DNA from: Methanococcus maripaludis
Lineage (GTDB): Archaea; AGJL01; Methanococci; Methanococcales; Methanococcaceae
Assembly: GCF_013760955.1 (NCBI RefSeq)
Contig: NZ_JACDUL010000002.1
Location: 132,719 to 196,718, forward strand
Length of the DNA: 64,000 nt
Reading direction: 5' to 3'
The stretch's first letter is position 1, and each line of letters starts with the position of its first letter. Of the stretch, positions 33,919 to 55,008 are shown piece after piece. The position numbers were made by a program, and so were the translations under genes. The notes under the pieces are model-generated. The model saw only the letters and a program-made list of their open reading frames with translations. It ran no database searches and was not told the origin of the DNA.

Positions 33919-35727
33919 CTAATTACCACCAAAAATTTTTTTGAAGAAATTAGCTAAAATGTATGAAAAACTATTGAGTTGATCTTCAGTATCTTGTTTT
34001 CCAAGTTTTGCCAATTCAAAGTTTGTATTTATTTCCAATGCTCTATCGTAACATTTTAAGGCTTCTTCATAGTTTTCAAGTTTAAAAAATATGTTTCCTT
34101 TGTTATTCCAAAGTTCTTCATCTTCTGAATCTAATTCCAATGCTTCATCATAGCATTCAATTGATTCTTCGTATCTTTCGAGTTTATAAAGAGTATCCCC
34201 TTTGTTATTCCAAATTTCTTTGTCATTGGAATCTAATTCAATGGCCTTATCAAAACATTCTATGGCTTCTTCGTATCTTTCAAGTTCAAAAAGGGCATTT
34301 CCTTTATCGGCCCATGCTTTTTCATTGCTTTTATCAACTGCAATAACTAAATCATAGCATTCAAGTGCTTCCTCATATTTTCCAAGTTCAAAAAGGGCAT
34401 TTCCTTTATTTTGCTGTGCTTTAGTGTAATTAGAATCTATTTCTAAAGCTTTATCATAGCATTCTATGGCTTCTTCGTATCTTTCAAGTCCTGCCAAAGA
34501 ATATCCTTTGTTTTTATATGCCTTACTATAGTTATTGTTTAATTCCAATGCTTCATCATAACAGGTTATTGCTTCTTCGTATCTTTCAAGTCCTGCTAAA
34601 GCATAACCTTTGTTATTCCAGAATTTCTCATTTTTAGAATCTATTTCTAAAGCCTTATCCAAACACTCGCTAGCTTCTTCGTATCTTTCAAGTTCGTTTA
34701 AAGAATATCCTTTTTTATTCCAGAATTTCTCATTTTTAGAATCTATTTCTAAAGCCTTATCCAAACACTCGATAGCTTCTTCGTATCTTTCAAGATTTGA
34801 AAGAGAACAGCCTTTACTATACCAAATATATTCATTTTTAGGATCTATTTCTAAAGCTTTATCATAGCATTCTATGGCTTCTTCGTATCTTTCGAGTTCA
34901 TAAAGTGAATCCCCCTTATAGTAATTAGACTCGAGATAATCAAAATTTAATTCCAAAGATCTGTCAAAACATATTATGGCTTTTTCATATTTTCCAAGTT
35001 CATAAATAGCATATCCTTTATTACCCCATAAAACATAACTGCTAGAATCTATTTCTAAAGCTTTATCATAACATTGAACTGCTTCACTGTACCTTTCAAG
35101 TTTACATAATGTATTTCCTTTATCATTCCAAGCATTTAGATAACTAACATATTTTAATGCTTTATCAAAACATTCTATGGCTTCTTCGTATCTTTCGAGT
35201 TCATAAAGAGTATTTCCTTTATCCGTTAACATGTATATGTTATTTGGATAGGTTTCTAAAGCGATATCAAGGCATTCTATGGCTTCTTCGTATCTTTCAA
35301 GACCATATAAAGAGGCACCTTTCATATAGTAAACTTCTGGATTTTCTTCATATATTTCCAATGACTTATCAAAACATTCTATGGCTTCTTCGTATCTTTC
35401 AAGATCATGCAATGCATATCCTTTGTACTGCCAAGTGTCGTAATAGTCAGAATTGATTTCCAATGCTTTATCAAAACATTCTATGGCTTTTTCAGACTCA
35501 TTTATGGCATATAAAATATAGCCCTTGCTGACCAGTGCTTCCATATTGTACGGATTAATCCTTAAAGTTTCATCAAAACTTTCAATTGATTTTTCAAAGT
35601 TTCCGTTTCCAAAATACTCAAGTCCACTGTCAATCCAGTCTTCTGTAGATGATCCAATCGTCCCAGCATAACAAGTATTCATAATAAAAAAAATTGAAAA
35701 TAGTAGTAAAACCCCCTTTATTTTCAA
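33919..35727 (-). CDS. Secreted or surface-anchored tetratricopeptide-repeat protein
   Basis: About 602 residues: N-terminal signal sequence (KGVLLLFSIFFIMNTCYAG), then roughly 16 TPR units of 34 residues up to about residue 590, many with nearly identical cores (LERYEEAIECFDKALEID). The DNA shows the same 102-bp periodicity. A short basic/aromatic tail ends the protein. TPR arrays bind other proteins; the export signal suggests an extracytoplasmic scaffold. TTG start at 35727 after GGTGATT; the ATG upstream overlaps it. Function unknown. Confidence 0.8.
   Translation of the reverse strand: MKIKGVLLLFSIFFIMNTCYAGTIGSSTEDWIDSGLEYFGNGNFEKSIESFDETLRINPYNMEALVSKGYILYAINESEKAIECFDKALEINSDYYDTWQYKGYALHDLERYEEAIECFDKSLEIYEENPEVYYMKGASLYGLERYEEAIECLDIALETYPNNIYMLTDKGNTLYELERYEEAIECFDKALKYVSYLNAWNDKGNTLCKLERYSEAVQCYDKALEIDSSSYVLWGNKGYAIYELGKYEKAIICFDRSLELNFDYLESNYYKGDSLYELERYEEAIECYDKALEIDPKNEYIWYSKGCSLSNLERYEEAIECLDKALEIDSKNEKFWNKKGYSLNELERYEEASECLDKALEIDSKNEKFWNNKGYALAGLERYEEAITCYDEALELNNNYSKAYKNKGYSLAGLERYEEAIECYDKALEIDSNYTKAQQNKGNALFELGKYEEALECYDLVIAVDKSNEKAWADKGNALFELERYEEAIECFDKAIELDSNDKEIWNNKGDTLYKLERYEESIECYDEALELDSEDEELWNNKGNIFFKLENYEEALKCYDRALEINTNFELAKLGKQDTEDQLNSFSYILANFFKKIFGGN
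33990..35660. repeat. Tandem 102-bp coding repeats of the TPR gene
   Basis: A block around TTCTATGGCTTCTTCGTATC recurs about every 102 bp, often identical. Adjacent units (e.g. 34612-34710 and 34714-34812) are nearly copies, so repeat-number change by recombination is likely. Confidence 0.75.
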
Positions 35728-35886
35728 AATAATCACCATTTATTTTTATTAATTAAATAAAGTTGTAAAAATTGCACATTTATCATGTCTTAATGGGCCA
35801 TTTTATGCCCATAAAAATTATATTTATACCCTTATTAAATTATCGATTTAACTTCAACAAAAAAATAAAACTTATGAAAAAGTTAT

Positions 35887-36519
35887 TTAAAAGAATTTTG
35901 GAAGTTCTAATTTTGGAAGTTCGATTTTAAATGGATCATTAGATTTTTTACTAGTTTTTTTCGGTTCAGCAGGCTTTTTACTAGTCGCTGGTTTTTTAGC
36001 ACTTTTTGGTTTTGAAGTTTTGCCTGTCGGTTTTTTAGATCCTGGCTCTTTAGCTTTTGGTTTATTACTTGTAGTTCTTAATTTTGGCGTTTTTTTCTCA
36101 ATAATCTTAATATTTTTTTGGGAAAATCCCATAGAGTCTCCTGTATTGATACTTCTTAATTCATATTTTAAATCTTCAAGTGTTTTGGTGCTGGTTTCAC
36201 CAGTTAATACGATAAGTACACCTTCAGAATAATCTTGCATATATCGACTAACTTGTCCTAATAAACGGTCTACTTTTGCTTTTTTATCAAGGTTATGTTT
36301 AAGTTCAATTCCAACTGCCCGTTCAACTGCAATGTCACACAAATTTCTACCGCTTTCCATTCGAACTGAGTAGTTTGACGATCCGAAAAAAGAATTATTG
36401 TTTAAATTCGTTCTAAGATGGTGAAATAAGTCATCTTGATAACCTTTTTCGTTTGGGTAAAATTTTGGTTTCCAAACCTTAACACTATCATGAACCTTTG
36501 GAAAAAGTCCGCCTAACAT
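35887..36519 (-). CDS. PD-(D/E)XK nuclease-like protein with lysine/proline-rich tail
   Basis: 210 residues from the ATG at 36519 after GGGGGATTTTT. Residues about 25-110 look like a restriction-endonuclease fold: Asp62 (NLCDIAVE) and Glu72-X-Lys74 (GIELKHN) at the usual spacing, followed by LLGQVSRYMQDY and a VLIVLTGE strand. Residues 145-195 are a low-complexity tail of Lys, Pro, Ser and Ala (KPKSAKKPATSKKPAEPKK), likely to bind nucleic acid, and the end reads KIELPKLELPKFF. Same strand and 41 bp after a 51-aa basic protein with a similar tail. Function unknown; no methyltransferase partner is visible. Confidence 0.6.
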   Translation of the reverse strand: MLGGLFPKVHDSVKVWKPKFYPNEKGYQDDLFHHLRTNLNNNSFFGSSNYSVRMESGRNLCDIAVERAVGIELKHNLDKKAKVDRLLGQVSRYMQDYSEGVLIVLTGETSTKTLEDLKYELRSINTGDSMGFSQKNIKIIEKKTPKLRTTSNKPKAKEPGSKKPTGKTSKPKSAKKPATSKKPAEPKKTSKKSNDPFKIELPKLELPKFF

Positions 36520-36559
36520 AAAAATCCCCCTCAAAGTTAGTAAAAAAAAGATGAAGAAA

Positions 36560-36715
36560 TTATTTTTTCTTGCATGCTTTTTTAGTAGTTTTTTTAGCAC
36601 TTTTTGGTTTTGCACCTAAAATTTCGTTTGCAACTTGTTTACTAAAACTCTTTCTTCCGTCCCCCGTTAACATCTTATTAACCATGCCTTGTGCCGTAGT
36701 TGGACCTTTGGCCAT
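36560..36715 (-). CDS. 51-aa basic protein with lysine-rich tail
   Basis: Short gene with a good ribosome site (GAGGTGGGATA before ATG). The protein begins MAKGPTTAQGMVNKMLTGDG and ends KPKSAKKTTKKACKKK. Net charge strongly positive. A 23-bp stretch encoding the KPKSAKK part is identical to one in the nuclease-like gene downstream, in the same frame. Probably co-transcribed with it. No family recognised. Confidence 0.7.
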   Translation of the reverse strand: MAKGPTTAQGMVNKMLTGDGRKSFSKQVANEILGAKPKSAKKTTKKACKKK

Positions 36716-39946: not shown

Positions 39947-40861
39947 TTGAAGTTAAGAATCGGAACAAGGGGCAGTACGCTTGCAATGGTCCAGACAGAA
40001 TATATCGCAGGTCTTTTAAATGATCTCGGTGTTGAAACAGAAATTGTTATTGTTAAAACTACTGGGGATAAGGATCAGACTAAAAAACTTGTAGATCTTG
40101 GACTTGGAGTTTTTACAAAAGAACTTGATAGCAAAATGCTTGAAAACGAAATTGATATTGCAGTACACAGTTTAAAAGACGTTCCAACCCTTTGGAGTGA
40201 TGAATTACAGATTACTGCAACCCCAAAACGAGAAAGTCCTGATGATATTATAATCTGGAGAAAAGACAGCGATTTTGATATCGAACATGACGAATTAGAT
40301 GTTGGAACTTCGAGCATTAGACGAACTTCATTTTTACAATTTACACACCCCAATTTAACACCTAAACTTTTAAGGGGGAATGTCGCAACAAGAATTGATA
40401 AATTAAGAAATAGGGAATACGATACAATTATAATGGCAAAAGCAGGCCTTATCAGGCAGGGTATTGATTTATCCGAATTTAATTATACAAAGCTCGATAT
40501 GCTTCCTGCACCAGCTCAAGGAGTAATTGGAGTTGCTTCAAGAAAAGCAGACATCAAAATCAACGAAATTTTGGAAAAAATATGTGATAAAAAAACATAT
40601 ATTGAAGCTACTGCTGAAAGATGGGCCTTAAAAGAATATGGTGGCGGATGTCAGGCACCTTTTGGAGCTTTTGCAGTTTATGATACTGAAGATGGGATTT
40701 TAAATTTAAGATGTGAACTTGTGGACGAACAGGGCACAATAAAGCGAGTAAAATCAAATGAAGGATTTGTAATCTGCACTACTGATGAAGTTGAACTTGC
40801 AAAGGAACTCGGTGCAAGAGTCGGTGCATTATTTAAAGAAATCGAAACTTTTACTTATTAG
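39947..40861 (+). CDS. hemC: Porphobilinogen deaminase (hydroxymethylbilane synthase)
   Basis: 304 residues. Condenses four porphobilinogens to hydroxymethylbilane for siroheme, F430, cobalamin and heme d1-type tetrapyrroles. RIGTRGSTLAMVQT opens the protein, SLKDVPT follows, and Cys235 in GGGCQAPFGA carries the dipyrromethane primer. TTG start after GGTGAAATT. Single gene with its own AT-rich promoter region. Confidence 0.95.
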   Translation: MKLRIGTRGSTLAMVQTEYIAGLLNDLGVETEIVIVKTTGDKDQTKKLVDLGLGVFTKELDSKMLENEIDIAVHSLKDVPTLWSDELQITATPKRESPDDIIIWRKDSDFDIEHDELDVGTSSIRRTSFLQFTHPNLTPKLLRGNVATRIDKLRNREYDTIIMAKAGLIRQGIDLSEFNYTKLDMLPAPAQGVIGVASRKADIKINEILEKICDKKTYIEATAERWALKEYGGGCQAPFGAFAVYDTEDGILNLRCELVDEQGTIKRVKSNEGFVICTTDEVELAKELGARVGALFKEIETFTY

Positions 40862-40950: not shown

Positions 40951-42681
40951 ATGGCAGATTATAACAATGCAGTAGTTTTCTATGATGCATGCGGAATCGA
41001 ATATTCAAAACAGATTAAAAAAACTCTTGAAAGGGGTTTTGAAAGAGAATGTTTTTTAATAAACCTTGATGCGCATGAAAATACTCTTTCGAAGATTAAT
41101 TCGGCACTGAAAACGAGTAAATATGTTATTTTTATGTTTAGTTCGATTTATTCTAACGAACAGCTGTTAAGTGAAGCAAAAAATGCATTTAATTCCGATA
41201 AACAGATAATTTCTTTAAAATTAAACGATCCGAGTTTAAAACAACAGATTTCAGTCCACCAATCTGAATTTACGGATAACTACAGTCTTTCAAAAAAAGT
41301 AAGTGAAGAAGTTGAAAAACTTAAAAAAATGGAAATTAGGGGTCCAGATTTTATAGAATCAATAATTTCATTTAATATGGGAAATATTTACTTTAATTTT
41401 GGAAAATACGACGAAGCTATAAGATGCTACAAAAAAGCCGTGAAAATAATACCTGATTTCGTAGATGCACTAAATAACTTTAATTCACTTTCAAACCTGA
41501 GATTATCTGAAATTGAAGATAAAAGGCCTGCCATATACAAGGATGCAAAAATTGATGAAATCGTACCAGATATTTTTTCAAATGCTGTTGAAGAACCCGA
41601 AGAAACTCAAAAGTGCACAGAACTTGAACCAGAAGAGCTTGAAGACCTTATTTTAGAAGGAGAAATTGGGGCGGGGCCTGAACCAGAACTTGAAAAAGAA
41701 GTTGAAACGCCAGTTGAGGAAAATATAGAAACTGAGTTAGAAACGAATATTGAAGATGAAATGGTGGAAATTGAAGAATTAAATAACGAAAAAGAAGTAA
41801 TTTTTGAAGAAGAACCACAAGAAGACATTGAAATTGAATCTGATGACGTGGACGATGAACTTATTTCAGATGCCGAAATTGAAGAATTTGGTATTGAAGA
41901 AAATTTTGAGGAAATCGAAGAAGATATTCCTGAAACTGAAGAAATATCTGATGAAACAGAAATAATTTTAGAAGAAGAAATTGAATCAGAAATTGACGAA
42001 GTTGTCGTAGAAATTTCTGAAGAAATAATTGAAGACATTGAAATTTTGGAAGTTGTTGATGAATCTGAAGATATCGAAAAAATAATTGACGCAGATACCT
42101 CTGGTGAATTAGAGTCTTTTGAAGAACTATTGGATAAAAATGAAATCGAAGAGGAAACACAAGAATTAATCCTTGGAGATATAACCGATACAGGATTTGC
42201 TGAAGTTTTAACTTTTGCAAACGCACTTTATGAATCAGGAGATTTTAACGCTGCCGAAGTAGAATATAAAAAAGCAATAATCCTAAATCCTAATTATTCG
42301 GAAGCACATAATAATTACGGATGCCTTTTGGAATATCTCGAAAGATTCGATGAAGCAGAAGTTGAATTTAAAAAAGCAATAGAATTGAATGTTTTAAACA
42401 TAAGGGCGCATAATAACCTTGCAACGCTTTTAGCAAAAGCTGAAAAATACGAAGAAGCAGAAATGCACTATAAAAAAGCAATTGAACTAGATCCTGAGTA
42501 TTGGGGCGCAATTTATAATTTAGGGGCAATGTATGCAACCTTAAAAAGATATGATGATGCAATATCTCAAGTTAAATCAATGATTAAAATCTTCAGGTCT
42601 GAAGGAAATATTAAAGAAGTTTTAGAGCTTAAAAAACTTGTAAAACATTTAAAAAAGTTAAAAATCCAAAATGGTAAATAA
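40951..42681 (+). CDS. TIR-like domain protein with acidic linker and TPR repeats
   Basis: 576 residues in four parts. Residues 5-125 resemble a TIR/STIR fold: NAVVFYDACGIEYSKQIK strand-helix, KYVIFMFSS strand, then SNEQLLSEAKNAF with Glu75 at the place of the TIR catalytic or structural Glu. One TPR follows (139-172). Residues about 195-405 are extremely acidic (mostly Glu/Asp/Ile/Ser). Residues about 425-560 hold three to four TPRs (NPNYSEAHNNYGCLLEYLERFDEAE pattern). No signal peptide, so intracellular. TIR assignment is by pattern; function unknown. Confidence 0.65.
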   Translation: MADYNNAVVFYDACGIEYSKQIKKTLERGFERECFLINLDAHENTLSKINSALKTSKYVIFMFSSIYSNEQLLSEAKNAFNSDKQIISLKLNDPSLKQQISVHQSEFTDNYSLSKKVSEEVEKLKKMEIRGPDFIESIISFNMGNIYFNFGKYDEAIRCYKKAVKIIPDFVDALNNFNSLSNLRLSEIEDKRPAIYKDAKIDEIVPDIFSNAVEEPEETQKCTELEPEELEDLILEGEIGAGPEPELEKEVETPVEENIETELETNIEDEMVEIEELNNEKEVIFEEEPQEDIEIESDDVDDELISDAEIEEFGIEENFEEIEEDIPETEEISDETEIILEEEIESEIDEVVVEISEEIIEDIEILEVVDESEDIEKIIDADTSGELESFEELLDKNEIEEETQELILGDITDTGFAEVLTFANALYESGDFNAAEVEYKKAIILNPNYSEAHNNYGCLLEYLERFDEAEVEFKKAIELNVLNIRAHNNLATLLAKAEKYEEAEMHYKKAIELDPEYWGAIYNLGAMYATLKRYDDAISQVKSMIKIFRSEGNIKEVLELKKLVKHLKKLKIQNGK

Positions 42682-42691
42682 TTTAAATATT

Positions 42692-43552
42692 TTAGATATT
42701 TTGTTCTTTTTTCCAAGTAATCATTGCTTCTTTTGACGTTTTTGTAAATGTCCAAGAATCTTCTGCTTTAGTTAACTCTTCTGACAATATCTCTTTTATT
42801 TTTGAATACTGTTCATCATTTAATGTAAGTTCTCCGCGAGCTTTGAATCTATCCAAATAATGTTCAGCTGCATCATCTAAATTGTTAAATGTTTGGGAAA
42901 ATGATTTTTCACTTAATTTAACATCAGCATATATTCCAAGTTGGTGTAAAATATTGTAAATTAAAATATATGTCATGCCAAATTCTTTTCTTTCAGGTTT
43001 TTGTTCAAAAATGGATTCCCTAATTTTATTATATATCTCCCTCCAAGCTTGGCGAGTTCCAAACGTTAAAATGCAACAGTATTTTTCAGCATAATTATTC
43101 ATTTTTTTAAGTGACTCTTCCATGTCATCTACGCCGAGTGAATAGGACGAAAATACAATATCGGGGTTAAATTCCCTATTTAATTCAAAATTATCCCATC
43201 TTTTATTTATTATGTTAATGTTGTCAATACATTCTTCTTTCATTCTATTTTTCAAAATATCTATCATACCAGTAGACTGTTCTACAACAGTAATTTCTTT
43301 GACTTCTTTTGCAAGCGGTATTGTGTAAGTTCCAGGTCCAGGTCCAATCTCTAAAATTGATGTGTTTTTATCGATATTAAACTCGTTTTTAAGATAGTCA
43401 ATATTGTGTCCAACCCATCCATTTTTATTATTTAGCACATTTTTAGCGTAATTTTTTGAAAAAGTATCCCAAAAATTTTTCGATTCTTTTTCTGACTTAA
43501 ATTGGGTTTTCCCATGATTTTTTCGGTAATATTCTGCCCAATCTACTTCGAT
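42692..43552 (-). CDS. Class I SAM-dependent methyltransferase, possible start-codon lesion
   Basis: Motif I is ILEIGPGPGTYTIPLA; post-I acidic VVEQS and motif IV DIVFSSYSLG are present, so it should bind S-adenosylmethionine; substrate unknown. The first standard start is GTG at 43438 (248 aa) without a ribosome site. The same frame stays open for 38 more codons to 43552, with a coherent N-terminus (VDWAEYYRKNHGK, NFWDTFSKNYA) typical of related proteins. It begins just after GGTGAAACT at a codon ATC where ATG would be expected. I list the longer form; the true start needs proof. Confidence 0.65.
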   Translation of the reverse strand: MEVDWAEYYRKNHGKTQFKSEKESKNFWDTFSKNYAKNVLNNKNGWVGHNIDYLKNEFNIDKNTSILEIGPGPGTYTIPLAKEVKEITVVEQSTGMIDILKNRMKEECIDNINIINKRWDNFELNREFNPDIVFSSYSLGVDDMEESLKKMNNYAEKYCCILTFGTRQAWREIYNKIRESIFEQKPERKEFGMTYILIYNILHQLGIYADVKLSEKSFSQTFNNLDDAAEHYLDRFKARGELTLNDEQYSKIKEILSEELTKAEDSWTFTKTSKEAMITWKKEQNI

Positions 43553-43737: not shown

Positions 43738-45336
43738 ATGGCAATTAGTATTAAAAAAATAGTTAGCATCGGGTTAGGTGGCTTGATGCTCGGTTCAGCA
43801 CTTTCTTCAAGCGCTTTTGCAGTAGAAAAAGTTGGGGATGTAGATTCTTTTGTTTCAGATCTCGTTTCAACCGATAATTCAAATGTTGATATAATTGTTG
43901 GCTCAAATTCAGTAGCTTCAGATGTTGTATCCGCTGCAAATATCGCAGCAAAACTTGGATCATTATCCTTTTTAGAACAAACTGGTGAAGAAGCTTCTGC
44001 AACTTTATCAATTGGTTCAAAATCTAAATCAGATAACTTTAATTTAGTTGGTTCAGGAGTTACGGATTCCCTTTTCGCAGTTTCCGTAGACGATGATTAT
44101 GTTTCTAGTATATCAAATGTTGATTTCCACAGTTCAACAAACTTAGACGCCACGGGGTATGTTTCATTGGAAGATCTTGGTAATTTAATGGAAGTATCTG
44201 ATACGGACCCTTCAAGCTGGGTTACAGGATCCGATAACGATGTTTCTGCAGAATTTATGTTTTTAAGGCTTAAAACAGATGTTGCAGATTGGAAAGTAAA
44301 TTCTGATGAGATGTCATATATGACATTATTATTTGATGAAAATACTGGAGTTCCAGCAGGCTTAAAAGGAATGTGTCCGGGACGTAACATTGCATATTTA
44401 GGTGAAGAATGGACATTAATGGGTATGAGTTGTGATGCCGATAAAGTTGTTCTCGGAAAGGAAGTTTATAGGGGTGCATTAAAAGAAGGGGAATCTTATT
44501 CAGTAAATGGTTGTGAAATAAAAATCGACTCAATTATAACGGATGGTACCGATTACAAAGTCAGTGCAAAAATATTAAAAGATGGTGCAGTTGTGGCATC
44601 CACATATAACGAAGCACCAACAAACCTAATGGCAAACGGCATTGGAATAAGATTTCAAAAAGTTTACGAAAGTATAGACTCAAATGCGGCTTATGCTGAT
44701 GTTGTGATCGTAAATAATGTAAAAGGAATGCCTTTAGGTTCAGAAGTGATTCCGGATTATGAAATTTACTCAGTGTTATACACAGGCGGTACTTTTCAGT
44801 ATACTGATGACTTTGTAAAAGGTCAAAAAAATGTGGGGCTTGCTTTAAAGTATGTTGGTGATGATTTAACAGGTTTAGGATCCGACGATAGTGTTAAAGT
44901 TGCAGATTATGCAGATTTCCTGTTTGATGATGAGGGAAGCAGTGCAACCAAGTTAAATGTATTCTTTGAAATGAACGAAGAAAAAGAAGTTAGCTTAATC
45001 CAAACTCAAAAAACAAATGTTTTAAATGTGAAAATTCTTGCAGAAGAGATTTCTACTGGAGATGATGAATCCCTAACAATAGCCCCAATAGTTAAATTAG
45101 ATACTGAAACTTCAATGGAAACTTCAGAAAATCCATTAATATTAATTGGCGGGCCAGTTATAAATTCCATAACCAAAGAATTATCAAATGCTGGTTTAAT
45201 TGCAATAGACAATGAATCACCTGCAACTTTGGCATTAGCTGCGGGCGCTGCAAATGGAAATGATGTATTGGTTGTTGCAGGTGGCGATAGAAGTGCTACA
45301 ACAGACGCAGCAAACGCTTTAATTGCAATGATTTAA
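43738..45336 (+). CDS. S-layer protein (methanococcal Slp family)
   Basis: 532 residues. Signal peptide MAISIKKIVSIGLGGLMLG... cleaved after SSAFA, as in Methanococcus S-layer proteins. The N-terminal region matches the S-layer N-domain (VDIIVGSNSVASDVVSAANIAAKLG), and the C-terminus has the paired domain (LILIGGPVINSITKEL, DVLVVAGGDRSATTDAANAL). Three Cys-containing loops (GMCPGRN, MSCDADK, NGCEIK) are in the middle. Ribosome site CAGGTGAGTAG. Several Slp paralogues exist in Methanococcus; whether this one forms the main lattice cannot be told here. Confidence 0.85.
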   Translation: MAISIKKIVSIGLGGLMLGSALSSSAFAVEKVGDVDSFVSDLVSTDNSNVDIIVGSNSVASDVVSAANIAAKLGSLSFLEQTGEEASATLSIGSKSKSDNFNLVGSGVTDSLFAVSVDDDYVSSISNVDFHSSTNLDATGYVSLEDLGNLMEVSDTDPSSWVTGSDNDVSAEFMFLRLKTDVADWKVNSDEMSYMTLLFDENTGVPAGLKGMCPGRNIAYLGEEWTLMGMSCDADKVVLGKEVYRGALKEGESYSVNGCEIKIDSIITDGTDYKVSAKILKDGAVVASTYNEAPTNLMANGIGIRFQKVYESIDSNAAYADVVIVNNVKGMPLGSEVIPDYEIYSVLYTGGTFQYTDDFVKGQKNVGLALKYVGDDLTGLGSDDSVKVADYADFLFDDEGSSATKLNVFFEMNEEKEVSLIQTQKTNVLNVKILAEEISTGDDESLTIAPIVKLDTETSMETSENPLILIGGPVINSITKELSNAGLIAIDNESPATLALAAGAANGNDVLVVAGGDRSATTDAANALIAMI

Positions 45337-52236: not shown

Positions 52237-53202
52237 TTAAAGTAATTTTGAAAGAGGAGATTTGTCCAAATTATACAATTTAGCTATTTCTTTAAGAATT
52301 GCTTTAAATACTGGATCATTTCCACCATACTGTTCTGCATAGAGTTCAAGGCCCGAAAGGTGATTATATAATACATCAGGGTACGTCTGTGATATTTCAT
52401 AGACAGTATTTAAAACCATACTTCTTACGATCATGTTTTTAGAACAGCCCATCAAATCAAGTGTTTGGGGCATCGTATCATCAACCTGCCCTTTGGTAAG
52501 AGTGGGTAATTTCGAGAGCTGGTATACGATATTTAGCGGATCTAACTCTTTTATCTTACCTGATTTAAGGGTTTCAATAGTAAACACGTTAAATTGTAAA
52601 TCTTCTTTTGAAATGGATTCTTCAAGCATTTCCTCAGTAATTTCTAGCTTCTCAGGTAACACAAAGAATAATGACGATCCAATTTCCATCAATCTTCCAA
52701 AGAGAGATTCCTGTTTTGACGACTTCATCAACTGCTTAACATGTTTTTGAAGCTTTTTTTGATTCTCTGAAAGATTGTATTCCTTAAATTTCCCGTATTT
52801 CTTGATCAAGTTTCCAGTATAATTTCTAATGTCTAAATTAACAAAAGTCTTGTTTATGTGGCTTACTTCTGAATTAAAATTTTCATAAACCTCTGGATAA
52901 ACATCTGTTATCAATTTAAGTGAAATTAATGAATTCAAAACTAAAACTTCGCTTTTTTGTGATAAAAATGCTTTTAAAGGGGAAAACAATTCAGAAATAT
53001 CCTTATTATTTTTTAGATAATTTTTTGTGAGCAAATAAATAGCATTCGCTTTTAAAGTCTCACTATTTGATTTAAAATACATAAATAAATCCGAAGTTAA
53101 TGAATCGTCCTCATCCAACATTTTTTGAGCGTCGTTTAGCATATCGTCTTCCAGAAGCTTTTTTAATTTGTTAGATTTTGAACGAAGAAACCCGAGGACC
53201 AT
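52237..53202 (-). CDS. Helical-repeat (HEAT/ARM-like) hypothetical protein
   Basis: 321 residues, soluble and predominantly helical, with regularly spaced helix pairs (about residues 40-125 and 235-320) reminiscent of HEAT repeats. ATG after GGTGATTTA. Downstream of a 165-aa unknown gene by 31 bp on the same strand, likely co-transcribed. No function proposed. Confidence 0.6.
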   Translation of the reverse strand: MVLGFLRSKSNKLKKLLEDDMLNDAQKMLDEDDSLTSDLFMYFKSNSETLKANAIYLLTKNYLKNNKDISELFSPLKAFLSQKSEVLVLNSLISLKLITDVYPEVYENFNSEVSHINKTFVNLDIRNYTGNLIKKYGKFKEYNLSENQKKLQKHVKQLMKSSKQESLFGRLMEIGSSLFFVLPEKLEITEEMLEESISKEDLQFNVFTIETLKSGKIKELDPLNIVYQLSKLPTLTKGQVDDTMPQTLDLMGCSKNMIVRSMVLNTVYEISQTYPDVLYNHLSGLELYAEQYGGNDPVFKAILKEIAKLYNLDKSPLSKLL

Positions 53203-53233
53203 TAAATCACCTATTCCCCTTTTTTAAGTAAAT

Positions 53234-53731
53234 TTAAAGTTCGCTTTCATCGACAGGAGTGATTTTATATTCCATATCTTTGTTTTTTCTCATGAGTTCC
53301 AAGAATTTAATGCAGTTTGAAGGGTCCTTGTTTGTAACGGTTACTTCTAATGATCCTTTGATAAATTCATCTGATGAAAGTTTTGATTTTATTGGAACAG
53401 AACCGTATGCCATCAATATTTCGAGCAGTTCTTTCTGCATTGTCAAGCAGTTCTCTGCATCCCCAGTTATAACTATTTTATATGATGGGAAAAGCAGTTC
53501 GTAACAGTTTACCAATATGATTTCATTTTTTTGAAGTATTTCACAGAGTTTTGCATAATTTTCGCTTTTCGCTTTAACTATAAACTTTATCGAGTAAAAT
53601 TTATGGTTTAAACTGTTTTTAACAGTTAAATTGTAAAGTCCTGAAACATTTTCAGCAATTAACATTCTTAACTTTCCAAAAACATCAGATTCAGACAAAG
53701 CTTGTGTTACATAGAACTTTTCTTCTTCCAC
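53234..53731 (-). CDS. Hypothetical protein, possible two-domain ACT-like fold
   Basis: 165 residues beginning at GTG after GGTGAAAAA. The alternation of strands and helices in two similar halves (KFYSIKFIVKAKSENYAKLCEIL and SLEVTVTNKDPSNCIKFLELM) suggests a duplicated ferredoxin-like/ACT unit, by eye only. In an apparent operon with the HEAT-like gene. Confidence 0.55.
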   Translation of the reverse strand: MEEEKFYVTQALSESDVFGKLRMLIAENVSGLYNLTVKNSLNHKFYSIKFIVKAKSENYAKLCEILQKNEIILVNCYELLFPSYKIVITGDAENCLTMQKELLEILMAYGSVPIKSKLSSDEFIKGSLEVTVTNKDPSNCIKFLELMRKNKDMEYKITPVDESEL

Positions 53732-53826
53732 TTTTTCACCGGGCTCAAATTTCGATTTTGCTAATCGTATAAAATCTATTCTATTTATAATTGTATGATA
53801 TGATTTAGGTTATATTTAGCATTTAA

Positions 53827-55008
53827 TTATAATCTTGAACTTTCAGTACTTTTTGGACTTGTAAGTTGGGGTTCAAGTTTTACTGCATTAGCATATGCTT
53901 CTTTTGAATATTCTTCATTTCCAATGGTTTTATATACATTGGAAAGCTGTATCCAAAAGTCAGAAACGTTTTTATTCAGTGTAATAGCTTTTTTAAAGCA
54001 GTCTACTGCCTCATAATGTCTTTCTAAAATGTTTAAAATCTGGCCTTTATAGCACCATGCTTTTGCATATCCGTTATCTTTATCCAATGCTTTTTCAATA
54101 AATTCGAGAGCTTTATTGTAATTTTTTAATTTAATGTATGTTCGAGCAATTTTTACAAGTATAGATGGATTTAGAGGATTTCTTTCATATGCAAGTTCTA
54201 AGTAATAAAGGGCAGTTTCATAATCTTTATTTTCGTAATACAAAAGTCCAACTCTGCACCAAGGTTCATGGCTGTTTATATGGTTTTCAAGAACTTTTGT
54301 ATAGAGATCAAGTGCTTCGTTAGTTTTTCCGAGTTTTCTCAAAGCATCGCCTTTTGAAAGGGTCACTTGAAAGTTATTTTTGTGTTCCGATAAATACATG
54401 TCGTAAAATTGAATTGCTTTTTCATATCTTTTAACTGTATAGAATGCATTACCAATGTTTTTCCATACTTGTGTATCATACGGGCTTATTTTTAAGATTT
54501 TTTCATAAATATCAAGAGCTTCGTTAAATTTTCTAAGTCCAACGAGTGCAGTTCCTTTTTTTGCAAGTACGTCTTTATATTTTGGTTTTTTTTCTAGAAT
54601 TTTATCAAATTCCACAAGTGCTTCTTCAAACTTACCTGTTTTTAAGTAAGCGTCACCTAAAATTTCAGTAACTTTAAAATCTGGTTCAGAAACATTTTCC
54701 AAAATTTCAATAGATTCTTTAAACAATTCCAAGGAATTTAACAACATCGCATAGTTTTTTATTATTTCGAGATTGGTTGGGCTTATGGATAGTGCTTTTT
54801 CGTATGAATCCTGAGCTAGTTTTGATTTTTCAAGCATCTTGTAGGCATTTCCTTTAAAATACCATGCATCAGGATTTTTTGGTTCTGAACCAATGGCTTT
54901 ATTAAAAAATTCTATCGCTTTTTGATATTTACCTTTATTATAATAGTCAATACCCTTTTCAAGCAATTTTTTTGGTTCCTTTGTTTCGAAAATGGATAAT
55001 ATTCCCAT
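53827..55008 (-). CDS. Tetratricopeptide-repeat protein (cytoplasmic)
   Basis: 393 residues with about ten TPR motifs from residue 12 to 380 (e.g. KYQKAIEFFNKAIGSEPKNPDAWYFKGNAY, HYEAVDCFKKAITLNKNVSDFW). No signal sequence, unlike the TPR protein near 34-36 kb. Likely a protein-interaction scaffold; partners unknown. ATG start with a weak site. Confidence 0.85.
   Translation of the reverse strand: MGILSIFETKEPKKLLEKGIDYYNKGKYQKAIEFFNKAIGSEPKNPDAWYFKGNAYKMLEKSKLAQDSYEKALSISPTNLEIIKNYAMLLNSLELFKESIEILENVSEPDFKVTEILGDAYLKTGKFEEALVEFDKILEKKPKYKDVLAKKGTALVGLRKFNEALDIYEKILKISPYDTQVWKNIGNAFYTVKRYEKAIQFYDMYLSEHKNNFQVTLSKGDALRKLGKTNEALDLYTKVLENHINSHEPWCRVGLLYYENKDYETALYYLELAYERNPLNPSILVKIARTYIKLKNYNKALEFIEKALDKDNGYAKAWCYKGQILNILERHYEAVDCFKKAITLNKNVSDFWIQLSNVYKTIGNEEYSKEAYANAVKLEPQLTSPKSTESSRL

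What the first reader, a model, noticed from the sequence alone, without database searches (positions are those of the whole stretch)
40951..42681. TIR-like/TPR fusion with a long poly-acidic linker
The N-terminal 120 residues follow the strand-helix order of TIR domains, with Glu75 at the expected site, joined to TPRs through about 200 residues of mostly Glu/Asp. TIR-TPR fusions are signalling or NADase defence proteins elsewhere; this architecture is not one I know in methanogens.
Basis: inference. Interest (0 to 1): 0.6.

Follow-up and report, generated by a model that had tools for sequence, protein, structure and literature searches.

The report
Degenerate TIR–TPR protein of Methanococcus
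A methanogen protein really does begin with a divergent TIR (immune-type) domain joined to protein-binding TPR repeats with a very acidic linker, but it looks like a vertically inherited housekeeping scaffold of the genus Methanococcus rather than an NAD-destroying defence toxin.

Summary
The 576-aa ORF at 40951-42681 is real and conserved in all 7 Methanococcus species genomes held; its N-terminal domain was not found in the other 29 genomes of the order. Residues 1-126 are a divergent TIR domain. Pfam TIR_2 hits it below cut-off. Profile-profile P is 4.6e-5 against a TIR alignment; all decoys and 200 column shuffles gave P of at least 0.01. The model of residues 1-200 matches RRS1 TIR best (Foldseek E 5.5e-4), although model confidence is low. 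Glu75 aligns with the TIR glutamate.

The architecture differs from the description: TIR, one TPR, an acidic linker of about 220 aa, then four TPRs and a basic tail. "Mostly Glu/Asp" overstates the linker (43%), and four of seven species have far less acidic linkers.

The defence/NADase reading is not supported. Glu75 is lost in three of seven species. The BB-loop Gly and Box-1 Ser are missing in all seven. There is no PADLOC TIR match, defence neighbour or sign of mobility; the gene sits between hemC and an S-layer gene in four species. A relative encodes a separate SpbK-like TIR protein, which serves as a positive control.

Best reading: a non-enzymatic TIR assembly domain tethered to a TPR adaptor. 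Moderate interest.

The parts
40951..42681 (+). TIR-like/TPR fusion gene, 576 aa
   Evidence: ORF; orthologues in 7 of 7 Methanococcus genomes
40951..41328 (+). divergent TIR domain, residues 1-126
   Evidence: TIR_2 E 3.3e-4, 21.6 bits, below cut-off 28; hhalign P 4.6e-5 vs TIR alignment, decoys and shuffles P >= 0.01; Foldseek top hit RRS1 TIR
41173..41175 (+). Glu75, position of the TIR catalytic glutamate; replaced in 3 of 7 orthologues
   Evidence: joint alignment; role of this position per PMC7075850
41359..41481 (+). TPR1, residues 137-177, directly after the TIR domain
   Evidence: Pfam TPR_1 best stretch 141-170; helices 132-149, 153-166 in model
41536..42207 (+). acidic, low-complexity linker, residues 196-419, 43% D/E, net charge about -90
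   Evidence: fastest-evolving part, dN/dS 0.39-0.82
42208..42600 (+). TPR2-5, residues 420-550
   Evidence: five TPR_1 stretches in the protein; 51-93% identical across the genus
42601..42678 (+). conserved basic C-terminal helix/tail, residues 551-576 (KKLVKHLKKLKIQ)
   Evidence: basic pattern conserved in the seven-sequence alignment
39947..40861 (+). hemC-like gene (porphobilinogen deaminase, named from its sequence), conserved upstream neighbour in 4 species
43738..45336 (+). probable S-layer protein gene (slp/MMP0383-like, named from its sequence), conserved downstream neighbour in 4 species

Best explanation
It is a cytoplasmic adaptor/scaffold protein. The N-terminal divergent TIR domain acts as a non-enzymatic self-association or protein-interaction module. 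The TPR1 plus TPR2-5 blocks bind client or partner peptides. The long acidic, probably disordered linker lets the two ends move apart and may interact electrostatically with the conserved basic C-terminal helix. Shown here: TIR-type fold assignment, TPRs, linker composition, genus-wide conservation, and loss or absence of several TIR active-site hallmarks. Inferred: oligomerisation, partner binding, linker role and lack of catalysis.
For: TIR assignment. Non-enzymatic: Glu75 is replaced in the three voltae-clade-like orthologues; the BB-loop Gly present in 10 of 12 reference TIRs is absent in all seven; Box-1 F-I-S-Y has become VVFY/VVYH/VIIY; no aromatic residue lies four residues before the Glu. 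The domain is nevertheless under purifying selection in the four-species clade where it could be measured (dN/dS 0.15-0.31). In the other clade it is kept without the Glu. Core-gene behaviour: 7 of 7 Methanococcus genomes, syntenic in four. The TIR survey states that TIRs most commonly act in protein-complex assembly and that the Glu does not strictly track activity (PMC7075850).
Against: Four of seven species keep Glu75, so activity in that clade is possible. The structure model has low confidence (mean pLDDT 61-64), so the pocket cannot be inspected. No binding partner is known, and the neighbours give no functional link. The voltae-clade alignment around Glu75 contains a 21-residue insertion and could be misplaced by a few residues, although no other Glu lies at the expected spacing.
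Confidence: 0.5

Rival explanations
1. It is an active TIR NADase (or cyclic-ADPR synthase) whose TPRs sense a trigger, i.e. an abortive-infection defence protein, at least in the maripaludis/vannielii clade.
For: TIR fold and Glu75 retained in four species, aligned with the catalytic glutamate. TIR-TPR architectures exist in bacteria (group 6 TIRs, PMC7075850).
Against: Other pocket hallmarks missing; Glu lost in three orthologues. No PADLOC TIR/defence match, while a true SpbK-like TIR of a relative is detected by the same library. Fixed genus gene with no defence neighbours among those scanned.
Confidence: 0.15
2. The N-terminal domain is another flavodoxin-like/Rossmannoid domain (e.g. receiver-like or nucleoside deoxyribosyltransferase/SLOG-like) that resembles TIR by convergence.
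For: Weak secondary Pfam hit to SLOG LDcluster4 (E 0.03). Some non-TIR Rossmannoid folds among the Foldseek hits. Low pLDDT.
Against: TIR models are the best and most consistent hits in sequence, profile and structure searches. A flavodoxin-like decoy (B12-binding) gives P 0.11.
Confidence: 0.15
3. It is a TPR co-chaperone or assembly factor for the abundant S-layer protein or a surface/secretion process, with the TIR domain as a multimerisation relic.
For: Near an S-layer-like gene in four species; acidic linker and basic tail are compatible with chaperone-like binding (inference).
Against: In the voltae-like clade the gene sits elsewhere, with no S-layer-like gene in the 16 kb examined. A methyltransferase-like gene on the opposite strand separates the two in the window. 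No signal peptide is apparent in the sequence.
Confidence: 0.12

Closest known systems
Group 6 TIR-TPR proteins of Actinobacteria (PMC7075850)
   Same: N-terminal TIR followed by C-terminal TPRs; classical Box 1-3 motifs not conserved.
   Different: Those are >700 aa with multiple TPRs and characteristic Trp residues (W15, W18) not seen here; here one TPR is split from four others by an acidic linker, in an archaeon, as a gene present throughout the genus.
SpbK-like TIR defence protein (found in relative G001, L072:1126-2202)
   Same: TIR domain with glutamate in the same position.
   Different: Strong PADLOC spbK match (E 2.5e-39) and TIR_2 above cut-off; only one genome of the order has it; no TPRs. 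The window protein meets neither.
Non-catalytic or adaptor TIRs (RRS1, TIRAP/MAL)
   Same: Among the best structure-search matches (RRS1 TIR E 5.5e-4; TIRAP 2.8e-3); signalling by assembly rather than catalysis (own knowledge).
   Different: Only 11-13% identity; no relation in organism or pathway; the ranking among TIRs is not informative at this model quality.

Membership tests
TIR domain (Pfam TIR_2/TIR clan) | match above the curated cut-off | tested here: not met
   21.1-24.3 bits against cut-off 28 for TIR_2; TIR 13.5 against 21.3
TIR domain (Pfam TIR_2/TIR clan) | profile-level homology over the whole domain, better than decoys | tested here: met
   hhalign P 4.6e-5, columns 1-131 vs 2-142; window decoys >= 0.22, B12-binding 0.11, reversed 0.028, 200 shuffles min 0.01
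TIR domain (Pfam TIR_2/TIR clan) | TIR-like fold | tested here: inconclusive
   best PDB match is a TIR (RRS1 E 5.5e-4, TM 0.60 by target) but model pLDDT is 61-64
TIR NADase | catalytic Glu conserved | tested here: not met
   present in 4, replaced by Leu (next to Cys/Ser) in 3 of 7 orthologues; the window protein itself has it
TIR NADase | BB-loop and Box-1 pocket residues | tested here: not met
   BB-loop column is Gly in 10 of 12 TIRs and in 0 of 7 here; FISY replaced by VVFY/VVYH/VIIY
TIR NADase | NAD+ hydrolysis | not testable with these tools
   needs enzyme assay
Known anti-phage TIR systems (Thoeris, SpbK, CBASS-TIR, etc.) | match to system protein models and partner genes nearby | tested here: not met
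   only a weak generic TPR model (17.8 bits) for the protein; no convincing defence neighbours among the five scanned
TPR proteins | tandem TPR motifs | tested here: met
   five stretches, TPR_1 E 1.5e-31, above cut-off

The most novel reading that the evidence does not exclude
A genus-wide archaeal TIR-TPR scaffold in which a former NADase TIR has been domesticated into a structural assembly domain, with stepwise loss of the active site visible across the genus (Glu retained in one clade, lost in the other), used for housekeeping rather than immunity.
Probability: 0.3. Interest if true: 0.55.

Novelty: new variant of a known kind. Interest (0 to 1): 0.35.

Why it matters
TIR domains are usually read as immunity parts. 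A conserved, apparently non-mobile TIR protein with a decayed active site in a genetically tractable methanogen genus would allow a test of what TIR assembly domains do outside defence in archaea. It also warns against calling every TIR-TPR fusion a defence NADase.

Tried and rejected
phmmer of residues 1-130 against PDB: no hits. The profile search gave only weak hits, 4 of the 5 sequences being TIRs (7xoz twice, SNC1, RPP1) at E no better than 0.15. Weak hits of the N-terminal profile in another genus and in the own genome proved to be hybrid-cluster-protein-like and DNA-polymerase ORFs, i.e. noise. Viral contigs and plasmids: no relative of the N-terminal domain. Foldseek against viral structures: nothing significant. 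No paper found for the expected locus tag MMP0381, itself a guess from gene order. The 'phylum' search covered only the same 36 genomes as the order. Pfam family TIR (PF01582) searched over the own genome: no match.

Full report
What is there. The ORF 40951-42681 (+) encodes 576 aa. It lies between a hemC-like gene (39947-40861) and, across a methyltransferase-like gene on the opposite strand (42692-43438, -), a gene for a probable S-layer protein (43738-45336). The window lies in a 1.76-Mb genome. Full-length orthologues occur in all seven genomes of the genus. Four share the hemC/TIR-TPR/methyltransferase/S-layer order; in three others a longer orthologue (763-792 aa) lies at a different place. 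A profile of the N-terminal domain finds no credible relative in the other 29 genomes of the order (two weak hits there are unrelated hybrid-cluster-protein-like ORFs), nor in viral contigs or plasmids.

Architecture. Residues 1-126 are the TIR-like domain. TPR1 (137-177) follows at once; then comes a low-complexity acidic linker (about 196-419), then TPR2-5 (about 420-550) and a basic helix/tail conserved in all seven sequences. The linker is 43% D/E with 3% K/R and net charge about -90, by far the most acidic stretch of the window. In the two nearest relatives the acidity is the same (42-43%), but in the other four species it is 24-26% D/E with net -20 to -40. The linker's sequence is loosely constrained (dN/dS 0.39-0.82), whereas TIR and TPR parts are under purifying selection (TIR 0.15-0.31, TPR2-5 0.08-0.24). 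These values come from the four-species clade only. This fits a disordered tether.

Is the domain a TIR? Pfam TIR_2 hits it at E 3.3e-4 (21.6 bits, below the cut-off of 28). When whole genomes are searched with TIR_2 it is the only match in the own genome and in G002. A profile of the seven domains aligned by hhalign to an alignment of 12 other TIR domains gives P 4.6e-5 over the entire domain. Nine other window families give P >= 0.22, a flavodoxin-like B12-binding alignment 0.11, the reversed profile 0.028, and 200 column shuffles no better than 0.01. Each of the two clades on its own also aligns in a TIR-like register (P 0.0013 and 0.006). AlphaFold models from this shallow alignment have mean pLDDT 61-64, but the strand-helix order is TIR-like. 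Among the best PDB matches of residues 1-200 are the RRS1 TIR (first, E 5.5e-4, probability 1.00, target TM 0.60), a cryptic TIR and TIRAP; ranks 2 and 3 are TRAPP subunits with poor TM-scores. I conclude a divergent TIR domain with about 0.85 confidence.

Is it an NADase? The survey PMC7075850 describes the glutamate at consensus position 75 as critical for NADase activity where that activity exists, and notes that its presence does not necessarily correlate with activity. In the joint alignment Glu75 of the window protein sits in the column that is Glu in all 12 reference TIRs. It is Glu in the four maripaludis/vannielii-like species and Leu (neighbouring Cys or Ser) in the three others. The BB-loop Gly, present in 10 of 12 references, is absent in all seven; the Ser of Box 1 (FISY) is replaced (VVFY, VVYH or VIIY); and no aromatic residue precedes the Glu at the SARM1 Trp position. 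Together with retention of the domain in spite of these losses, this favours a non-catalytic role. It is not proof: the four Glu-bearing species could retain activity.

Is it defence? PADLOC gives no TIR or defence-effector match for the protein, only a weak generic TPR model. The same library recognises a separate TIR protein of relative G001 as SpbK-like at E 2.5e-39, a useful positive control. Hits of neighbours to PADLOC models (methyltransferase to mad2, permease to CARF-LolE) most likely reflect shared generic domains. Presence throughout the genus, shared gene order in four species and absence from the viral and plasmid collections argue against a typical defence gene.

Mechanism. I commit to a scaffold: TIR-driven self-association, TPR-mediated partner binding, and a flexible acidic tether possibly contacting the basic tail (confidence 0.5). 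Fold assignment, architecture and conservation rest on the results above; every functional step is inference.

Limits. The alignment is only seven sequences deep, model confidence is low, and no wet-lab data or strain-level presence/absence were available.

Noticed in passing
L072:1126-2202 (G001 contig 1 near 467011): A relative of the window genome encodes a SpbK-like TIR protein (PADLOC spbK E 2.5e-39, TIR_2 above cut-off), the only above-cut-off TIR_2 match among 36 genomes of the order.
   Followed up: partly
window 35887-36615 (-) and L072:1126-2202: A 242-aa protein with no Pfam match has a Lys/Pro/Ser-rich C-terminal tail containing 'KKSNDPFKI'; the SpbK-like TIR protein of G001 has a similar tail with 'KKSDDPFNI' (BLASTP E 0.029 for the pair, low complexity). 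Relatives of the 242-aa protein occur in 3 of 6 other Methanococcus genomes. Unexplained.
   Followed up: partly
window 33919-35739 (-): 606-aa protein with about 16 TPRs (102-bp tandem array), starting with a hydrophobic signal-like segment.
   Followed up: no
window 52237-55008 (-): Two uncharacterised ORFs beside another TPR-like protein (53827-55008); not examined beyond a PADLOC scan of the first.
   Followed up: no
window 1-64000: No tRNA and no Rfam family above threshold in 64 kb.
   Followed up: yes
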